DNA of 64,000 bases from Malus domestica (taxonomy: Eukaryota > Streptophyta > Magnoliopsida > Rosales > Rosaceae). The stretch is from the NCBI RefSeq assembly GCF_042453785.1, contig NC_091671.1, forward strand, positions 32,999,001 to 33,063,000. Direction: 5' to 3'. The position numbers were made by a program, and so were the translations under genes. Each line of letters begins with the position of its first letter. Position 1 is the stretch's first letter. Positions 36,011-37,705 of this stretch are shown here, piece after piece. The notes below the pieces were generated by a model. That model was not told the DNA's origin. It saw only the letters and a list, made by a program, of their open reading frames with translations, and ran no database searches.

Positions 36011-37705
36011 ATGGGATTTCTGACACCGATTTATGAACGAATAATGTTCATATGGGCTCTGATTACACGATGGTTAAAGTATCGACAAAACTTTGAAGTT
36101 AATAATATGAACACTCTAAGAGGAATGTTGGAAGAGCTAATTAGCCAAAGTGAAGATATAATCGAAAAACTAGAGGCCGAGCCTCTCCTTCCAAGTAAAC
36201 CACAATGCGATGAAGTCTACGAGTGGTTAGAGAACGTGGAAAGGATCAAAACTCAAATACTAACTATTGAAAAACTCGGCGAAAGGAAATTTCTCTCGAT
36301 TGCACATCTTGGAAAGCTTGTTGATGAAAAAATTAGAGAAGTTGAAGAATTGCTTGAAAAGGGTAGTCTCTTTAGTGAGATTTCCCTTAAGAAGTCGTTT
36401 AAGTACGTGATCATCGGTGGTGGAGTTGCAGCTGGATACGCAGCAAGGGAGTTTGTCAAGCAAGGGCTTGAACCGGGTGAGTTAGCGATCATATCCAAAG
36501 AAGCCGTTGCACCTTATGAACGTCCGGCACTTAGTAAGGGCTATCTGCTTCCTGAAGGAGCTACAAGGCTTCCAGGGTTCCATGTCTGTGTCGGAAGTGG
36601 AGGAGAGAAGCTGCTTCCGGAGTGGTATGCGGAGAAAGGCATTGTGTTACTTCTTAGCACAGAAATAGTCGAAGCAGATCTTCATTCAAAGATCCTCACT
36701 AGTGCAACTGGGGGAATGTTTGAATTCGAAACTTTGATCATTGCAACTGGTTCCAGAGTTATAAGGTTGACAGAATTTGGTGTGCAAGGAGATCATGCCA
36801 AAAACATTTTCTACTTGAGGGAAATCAGTGATGCCGATAAACTTGTGGAGGCAATTAGAGCCAAGAAAAACGGAAAGGTAGTGATTGTTGGAGGAGGGTA
36901 CATTGGTCTTGAAGTCGGAGCAGCTATTAGAATCAACAAGTTCGATGTCACCATGGTTTTTCCGGAACCGTGGTGCATGCCTCGGCTTTTCACTAAAGAG
37001 ATAGCCGCTTTCTACGAGGGTTACTACGCCAATGAAGGAGTTCAAATGATCAAGGGCACCACTGCAGTAGGGTTCGATGTTGACACAAACGGAGAGGTAA
37101 AGGCAGTGAAACTCAAGGATGGTAGGGTGCTGCAAGCTGATATTGTTGTTGTTGGTGTCGGCGCAAAGCCTCTAATTGATTTGTTCAAGGGGCTAGTCGG
37201 TGAAGAGAAAGGCGGAATCCAAACTGATGGAATGTTCGAAACAGATGTCCCTGATGTATACGCCGTGGGGGACGTTGCTACTTTCCATATGAAATTGTAC
37301 GATGACATGAGAAGAGTTGAGCATGTTGACCATGCCAGAAAATCAGCCGAGCATGCTGTGAGAGCTATCAGGGCAAGTGAGGAAGGGAAGTGCATCGAAG
37401 AGTACGACTATGTTCCGTACTCCTACTCCCGTGCCTTTGATTTGTCGTGGACGTTTTATGGAGACAATGTAGGTGATCTGTTACTGTTTGGGGACCCCAA
37501 TCCAGCATCAAGCCAACTGAAGTTTGGAGCAGCATGGATCAAGGACGGGAGGATTGTGGGAGCGTTTTTGGAGGGAGGGACAGATGAAGAAAACAAGGCT
37601 ATTGCCAAAGTTGCAAGGGCACAACCTTCAGCTGAGTATCTGGATACACTGAAAAGGGAGGGCTCTTCCCTTCATATTTCCATGTTAACAAATTCCCAAA
37701 TATAA
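36011..37705 (+). CDS. Chimeric protein: NLR-type coiled coil fused to monodehydroascorbate reductase
   Basis: The ATG at 36011 lies seven bases after a splice acceptor; 564 aa, no intron in the coding part. Residues 1-126 resemble the N-terminal coiled-coil domain of CC-NBS-LRR resistance proteins: a hydrophobic start, [31 protein letters not shown], then [20 protein letters not shown] before a Gly-Ser-Leu-Phe. Residues 127-564 are a full-length cytosolic-type MDHAR, which regenerates ascorbate from its radical using NAD(P)H. Visible are the first FAD Rossmann motif ([12 protein letters not shown], 134-145), [17 protein letters not shown] (243-248), the NAD(P)H Rossmann motif [11 protein letters not shown] (294-304), FAD-binding AVGDVATF (418-425), [17 protein letters not shown] and [14 protein letters not shown]. 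The C-terminus is changed from the usual LxKEGLxFAxKI-type end. Plant MDHAR genes normally have many introns, so an intronless retrocopy captured by an NLR 5' exon is inferred. No NB-ARC or LRR remains. Confidence 0.88.

What the first reader, a model, noticed from the sequence alone, without database searches (positions are those of the whole stretch)
36011..37705. Fusion of an NLR-type coiled coil to a full-length monodehydroascorbate reductase
One uninterrupted 564-codon frame begins with about 126 residues typical of the CC domain of CC-NBS-LRR immune receptors ([29 protein letters not shown]) and continues directly into MDHAR with every FAD/NAD(P)H motif visible. NLR 'integrated domain' fusions are known, but here the NB-ARC and LRR are absent and the partner is an ascorbate-recycling redox enzyme. 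A CC domain could bring MDHAR to membranes or NLR complexes and link redox state with immunity; that function is speculation. The frame is preserved across the junction and through the enzyme, which suggests selection or recent origin.
Basis: partly seen in the sequence, partly recalled or inferred. Interest (0 to 1): 0.88.

Follow-up and report, generated by a model that had tools for sequence, protein, structure and literature searches.

The report
Ancient immune-receptor domain fused to vitamin-C enzyme
An apple-like genome carries a single-exon gene that joins the front domain of a plant immune receptor to a complete vitamin-C-recycling enzyme, and the same joined gene is found in rose, hemp, cacao and cotton, so it is an old conserved protein of unknown role and not a recent accident.

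Summary
The frame at 36011-37705 is real: 564 codons, about 127 helical residues joined directly to a full MDHAR. The N-terminal domain is homologous to the coiled coil (CC) of CC-NB-LRR receptors: a profile of 21 fusion N-termini against 20 CNL N-termini of the same genome gives hhalign P 3e-14 (reversed 0.003), and the five other matches listed for it in that genome are CNL or CNL-derived frames. The enzyme keeps the catalytic Arg and Tyr in 27 of 27 fusions. Canonical MDHAR genes of this genome have 9 and 10 exon blocks, so the enzyme part is a retrocopy. It is not recent: 26 of 120 listed homologues (of 2666) are fusions, named ones from five families of Rosales and Malvales; the CC tree supports one origin; an upstream neighbour is shared with cotton. 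An intact homeolog exists; dN/dS is 0.23 for the enzyme and 0.63, not significantly below 1, for the CC. Two papers list probable members without, in what I read, naming the CC. Expression, activity and any immune role of this gene are untested.

The parts
36011..37705 (+). single-exon CC-MDHAR fusion gene, 564 codons plus stop
36011..36391 (+). N-terminal domain homologous to the CC of CC-NB-LRR receptors (residues 1-127); helices predicted at 4-56, 63-92, 97-128 (131-residue model)
36392..37702 (+). intronless class III MDHAR (residues 128-564), catalytic Arg443 and Tyr472 (rice Arg320, Tyr349), C-terminus outside the published list of PTS1-like tripeptides
36003..36004 (+). splice-acceptor-like AG just upstream of the ATG; the same stretch lies upstream of the homeolog (candidate 5' UTR intron end; no RNA evidence)
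30416..35958 (+). young copia-type LTR retrotransposon inserted upstream of the gene, target duplication ATATT at 30411-30415 and 35959-35963; the homeolog has the uninterrupted site
24206..26320 (+). pieces related to a conserved upstream neighbour gene (24206-24701; 26129-26320, the latter with a stop) that gene models of Malus domestica and Gossypium raimondii join to the fusion

Best explanation
This is an old chimeric retrogene. Shown by sequence: an intronless class III MDHAR copy sits in frame behind a CC-coding stretch of CNL type, and the combination has been kept as one frame since before Rosales and Malvales separated. Inferred: the product is a working NAD(P)H-dependent MDHAR; its CC no longer drives an NLR switch but serves as an oligomerisation or membrane/partner-docking module that places ascorbate recycling at a particular site, perhaps where CNL complexes and oxidative bursts occur. 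Loss of a recognisable peroxisomal tail in the Rosaceae members fits a site other than the peroxisome there.
For: CC identity. Enzyme integrity. Retro-origin: 9 and 10 exon blocks in two canonical genes against one open frame; kiwifruit MDHAR genes, 7 to 18 exons; cotton MDHAR6, one exon. One origin and age. Maintenance. Expression of the probable cotton member, low, and raised by PEG, NaCl and ethylene.
Against: No transcript, protein, localisation or activity was tested for this gene. dN/dS of the CC is 0.63 with an interval that includes 1. The highest 19-residue hydropathy of the N-terminal helix is about 0.9 to 1.6 in Rosaceae and Malvaceae rows with a complete N-terminus but between -0.4 and 0.5 in the Cannabaceae, Shorea and P0058 rows, so a membrane anchor is not shown. 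The MGN start of the five RPS5-like apple CNLs is absent. Glu196, which favours NADH in rice, is replaced in 8 of 27 fusions, so the cofactor use may have changed.
Confidence: 0.7

Rival explanations
1. The CC retains an immune function: it binds or blocks CNL receptors or their guarded partners, and the MDHAR part sets local redox state when they fire.
For: CC homologous to CNL CC domains, kept fused to an enzyme with a complete active site.
Against: No interaction, cell-death or pathogen data; the CC evolves faster than the enzyme; the cotton data concern abiotic stress and hormones.
Confidence: 0.2
2. The N-terminal part is only a tolerated extension; the gene is a spare MDHAR whose CC drifts.
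For: CC dN/dS 0.63 (0.31-1.34) in the homeolog pair; against P0001, CC identity is 28-44% outside Rosaceae while the enzyme keeps 67-75%.
Against: The CC is in frame and aligned over at least 92 residues in each of the 26 other fusions, with invariant L43, E68, W72, I86 and G118 in the 21 aligned rows.
Confidence: 0.2
3. The N-terminal helices are an unrelated coiled coil, not of NLR origin.
For: No convincing Pfam match; single-sequence searches of the protein database found no NLR; PDB profile search best E 0.092, no NLR; Foldseek best E 0.41; unrelated helical proteins score close behind NRC3.
Against: Profile matches to 16 of 20 apple CNL N-termini at E < 0.01, no reversed one under E 9; the five other genome matches listed are CNL or CNL-derived. 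Five true CNL N-termini scanned also miss Pfam's Rx_N cut-off.
Confidence: 0.03
4. A recent or decaying pseudogene or an assembly join.
For: Retrocopies usually decay (general knowledge); a young LTR element ends 52 bases before the ATG.
Against: Intact homeolog, the same architecture in many other records, enzyme dN/dS 0.23.
Confidence: 0.03

Closest known systems
Class III (cytosolic/peroxisomal) MDHAR, for example rice OsMDHAR
   Same: fold, FAD and NAD motifs, substrate Arg and catalytic Tyr
   Different: extra N-terminal CC domain, no introns, no listed PTS1-like tail in the Rosaceae members
CC-NB-LRR receptors of RPS5/RPS2 type
   Same: CC homologous over about 120 columns
   Different: no NB-ARC and no LRR found; no MGN start. 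Other apple CNL groups match about as well, so the donor subgroup is open
NLRs with integrated domains
   Same: an NLR module and a foreign domain in one protein
   Different: here the NLR core is absent and the foreign part is a whole redox enzyme at the C-terminus
Cotton MDHAR6 (PMC7912408) and GraMDAR3 (PMC8615211); perhaps FveMDAR2 (PMC8615211)
   Same: single-exon cotton MDHAR in a family of up to 558 aa; G. raimondii class III protein of 729 aa, the length of P0019. Identity with the family is inferred from species, length and exon count. For the 867-aa strawberry FveMDAR2 only class and length speak for it
   Different: PMC8615211 reports no additional domains; the parts of PMC7912408 that I read do not name the CC
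Chimeric retrogenes of plants
   Same: cDNA of one gene joined to coding sequence of another
   Different: older and more widely kept than usual (my impression, recalled)

Membership tests
CC domain of CNL receptors | sequence-profile homology to CNL N-termini | tested here: met
   hhalign probability 98.2, P 3e-14, 123 columns against 20 apple CNL N-termini (reversed 0.0032); the five other genome matches listed are CNL or CNL-derived
CC domain of CNL receptors | helical-bundle CC fold | tested here: inconclusive
NLR receptor | NB-ARC and LRR in the protein | tested here: not met
NLR with integrated domain | foreign domain within an NLR that has NB-ARC | tested here: not met
Class III MDHAR | Pyr_redox_2 plus MDHAR3-like C-terminal domain | tested here: met
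Class III MDHAR | substrate Arg320 and catalytic Tyr349 of rice | tested here: met
   27 of 27 fusions and 92 of 92 normal; residues from PMC5031999
Class III MDHAR | PTS1-like C-terminus as listed in PMC8615211 | tested here: not met
   SQI here; listed tripeptides end 85 of 92 normal proteins and 7 of the 26 other fusions (six Malvaceae, one Shorea), none of the Rosaceae ones. The paper notes class III members without PTS1, so this does not exclude membership
Class III MDHAR | NAD(P)H-dependent MDHA reduction | not testable with these tools
   needs protein
Retrogene | intronless copy of an intron-bearing gene | tested here: met
   cotton MDHAR6 single exon
Retrogene | poly(A) tract and target-site duplication of the retrocopy | not tested
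   not expected to survive at this age

The most novel reading that the evidence does not exclude
A previously unrecognised class of plant protein, CC-MDHAR: an NLR-derived CC recruits an ascorbate-recycling enzyme into CNL or membrane complexes, so that NAD(P)H and ascorbate status is read or set at the immune receptor itself, and this has been kept in two rosid orders.
Probability: 0.2. Interest if true: 0.92.

Novelty: new variant of a known kind. Interest (0 to 1): 0.72.

Why it matters
Fusions that last are natural hints of which proteins work together. An NLR CC welded to a cytosolic-type ascorbate-recycling enzyme, and kept in fruit, fibre and other plant lineages, is a concrete, testable candidate for a direct link between immune-receptor modules and redox metabolism. 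It also suggests that a CC can be kept without its NLR core, and that gene-family surveys which counted such genes as plain MDHARs overlooked a domain.

Tried and rejected
Rejected: recent chimera, pseudogene, assembly join, unrelated coiled coil (see rivals).

Led nowhere or stayed weak: Pfam gave no convincing hit for the N-terminus (Rx_N was the most-hit family, 9 of 21 members, best E only 0.0093). Region searches of the protein database found only fusions (9 hits of 450 candidates; the query alone of 286). The PDB sequence search with the profile had best E 0.092 and no NLR. Foldseek for the CC model had no E under 0.001; TBK1/IKK and designed bundles score close to NLR CCs in VIA. The full-length model is middling (pLDDT 72.7, low at 168-200). 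With the three recalled NLRs one by one, hhalign P was 0.00045, 0.00054 and 0.0012, hardly better than the best of 200 heptad-block shuffles (0.0014); jointly 5.5e-6. In one search the reversed control of the five RPS5-like CNLs reached P 0.00067, against 5.2e-11 forward. In the MDHAR tree the fusions are one side of a branch (93/89), but the Rosaceae fusions stand next to the normal enzymes and not with the other Rosales. The CC tree carries a warning on long CNL branches. Which CNL group gave the CC is open.

Papers: ten searches. The listings (up to 10 or 20 rows shown of as many as 345 papers) showed no report of this architecture; subscription journals and preprints are not held. One search served the rice structure. 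PMC5703496, PMC9296770 and PMC9855080 were searched for passages and did not mention it there. Supplements were not readable.

Rows dropped: the tree used 24 fusions (P0009, P0019, P0023, the fragment P0122 and the tandem MDHARs P0003 and P0014 left out) and every second of 90 normal proteins (two of 92 lacked the motif used). Searches left out P0003, P0014 and P0122. The CC tree left out nine of 28 fusion rows. One search used 20 of 24 CNL loci (L030, L031, L037, L039 gave no suitable frame).

Full report
WHAT IS THERE. The frame at 36011-37705 (+) is open over 564 codons. Residues 128-552 are a complete MDHAR: Pyr_redox_2 E 2.4e-53 and MDHAR3-like_C E 3.3e-34, with grass MDHARs (rice, pearl millet) as the best solved relatives by sequence and the best structure matches of the model (best E 6.3e-64). 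Residue numbers here are rice plus 123 (my reading of the alignment). Substrate Arg320 and catalytic Tyr349 of rice (PMC5031999, abstract and passages) are R443 and Y472 and are present in 27 of 27 fusions and 92 of 92 normal proteins. Glu196, which favours NADH in rice, is Glu here but replaced in 8 of 27 fusions (7 Asp, 1 Gly) and in 0 of 92 normal ones.

THE GENOME. The window lies at C11:32999001-33063000 of a 651-Mb genome in 19 contigs. The nearest protein, 99% identical, is from Malus baccata, so this is apple or a close relative; the species is inferred. A second intact fusion, 86% identical, lies at C3:29628757-29630445. Canonical class III genes on C14 and C12 match a normal MDHAR in 9 and 10 separate blocks over about 3.2 kb each, while the fusion's enzyme part is one uninterrupted frame. 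This is the mark of a retrocopy. In kiwifruit, MDHAR genes have 7 to 18 exons (PMC10742914, passage). In four cotton species MDHAR6 has a single exon, in a family whose longest protein is 558 aa (PMC7912408, passages, the first part of the Results and section 2.5). A Gossypium fusion found here (P0017) has 558 aa, so I take MDHAR6 to be the cotton member (inference).

AGE AND ORIGIN. Of 120 listed homologues (of 2666 matches), 26 are fusions by inspection of the sequence before the FAD motif. Named sources are Rosaceae (Malus, Prunus, Rosa, Argentina), Cannabaceae (Trema, Humulus, Cannabis), Rhamnaceae (Rhamnella), Malvaceae (Gossypium, Theobroma, Herrania, Hibiscus, Corchorus, Reevesia, Diplodiscus) and Dipterocarpaceae (Shorea); six of the 26 are unnamed. 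Three lineages were looked up (Shorea and Gossypium in Malvales, malvids; Rhamnella in Rosales, fabids); the other families are recalled. The fusions join at the same place, close to the start codon of MDHAR; some keep the AEK of an original MAEK start. In the MDHAR tree 24 fusions are one side of a branch against 45 normal enzymes (93/89; 89% of 200 bootstrap trees), and fusions of Reevesia and Diplodiscus do not group with the normal enzymes of those species. In the CC tree 19 fusions form one group against 23 CNL CCs (100/99) and split into a Malvales (97/91) and a Rosales group (98/88), as the species do; unnamed rows fall in both. Gene models of Malus domestica (P0005) and Gossypium raimondii (P0019) carry, misjoined or read through, a related upstream gene (E 7e-16 between them). 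Pieces of it lie upstream in this window (E 1.8e-19 with the Malus model, 1.7e-4 with the cotton one) and it lies upstream of the homeolog. Shared position, junction and tree argue for one event before Rosales and Malvales separated, by general knowledge about 100 million years ago or more (recalled).

SELECTION. Between the homeologs dS is 0.21. dN/dS is 0.23 (bootstrap 0.16-0.36) for the enzyme and 0.63 (0.31-1.34) for the CC. At 0.1 neutral changes per site, the share of one copy, 0.5% of 400 simulated copies stay open. The enzyme is under purifying selection; for the CC this pair does not show it, though the frame and five invariant CC columns persist in the 21 aligned rows. The cotton paper reports Ka/Ks below 1 for all duplicated pairs and accelerated evolution for MDHAR1/6.

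HOW IT MOST LIKELY WORKS. Shown by sequence: one open frame, an NLR-type CC, an MDHAR with complete active site, long conservation. Inferred: a working enzyme whose CC acts as an oligomerisation or docking module in place of an NLR switch. By the published list of PTS1-like tripeptides (PMC8615211 section 3.1.5), 85 of 92 normal enzymes and 7 of the 26 other fusions (six Malvaceae, one Shorea) end in one; none of the Rosaceae fusions does, which fits a changed site of action there. The probable cotton member has low expression and rises with PEG, NaCl and ethylene, so it is not silent. An immune role is possible and untested.

COMPARISON AND NOVELTY. It is a class III MDHAR by fold and active site and lacks the NB-ARC and LRR that define an NLR; it is therefore neither an NLR nor an NLR with an integrated domain. 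PMC8615211 (sections 3.1.5 and 3.1.6) lists a 729-aa cotton and an 867-aa strawberry class III protein and reports no additional domains; the cotton one has the length of P0019. The paper searches named under Tried and rejected showed no description of this architecture. I rate it a new variant of a known kind: known modules in an architecture that appears not to have been recognised.

LOCAL DETAIL. A copia-type element (30416-35958, target duplication ATATT) ends 52 bases before the ATG. Its LTRs differ by 1 mismatch and 2 gap columns in 665, so it is young, and the homeolog has the uninterrupted site. It may alter expression of this allele.

Noticed in passing
window 30416-35958: Very young copia-type LTR element (LTRs nearly identical) just upstream of the fusion gene, inside what may be a 5' UTR intron; the homeolog lacks it.
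   Followed up: partly
window 24206-26320; L021 2270-3878: Conserved upstream neighbour gene of unknown function that separate annotations in Malus and Gossypium join to the fusion gene: misannotation or real read-through transcripts.
   Followed up: partly
L051 (C3:28536542): A 429-aa open frame with a CNL-type N-terminus (72% identical to that of L047), no P-loop, and what reads like LRR sequence behind it: an NLR remnant.
   Followed up: partly
P0003, P0014: Pistacia gene models of 895 and 693 aa that look like two MDHAR units in tandem.
   Followed up: no
residue 319 of the fusion family: The NADH-favouring Glu of MDHAR is Asp or Gly in 8 of 27 fusions and in none of 92 normal enzymes, hinting at changed cofactor preference.
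   Followed up: partly
window 38299-38402: Three tandem copies of a 34-base unit downstream of the gene.
   Followed up: no
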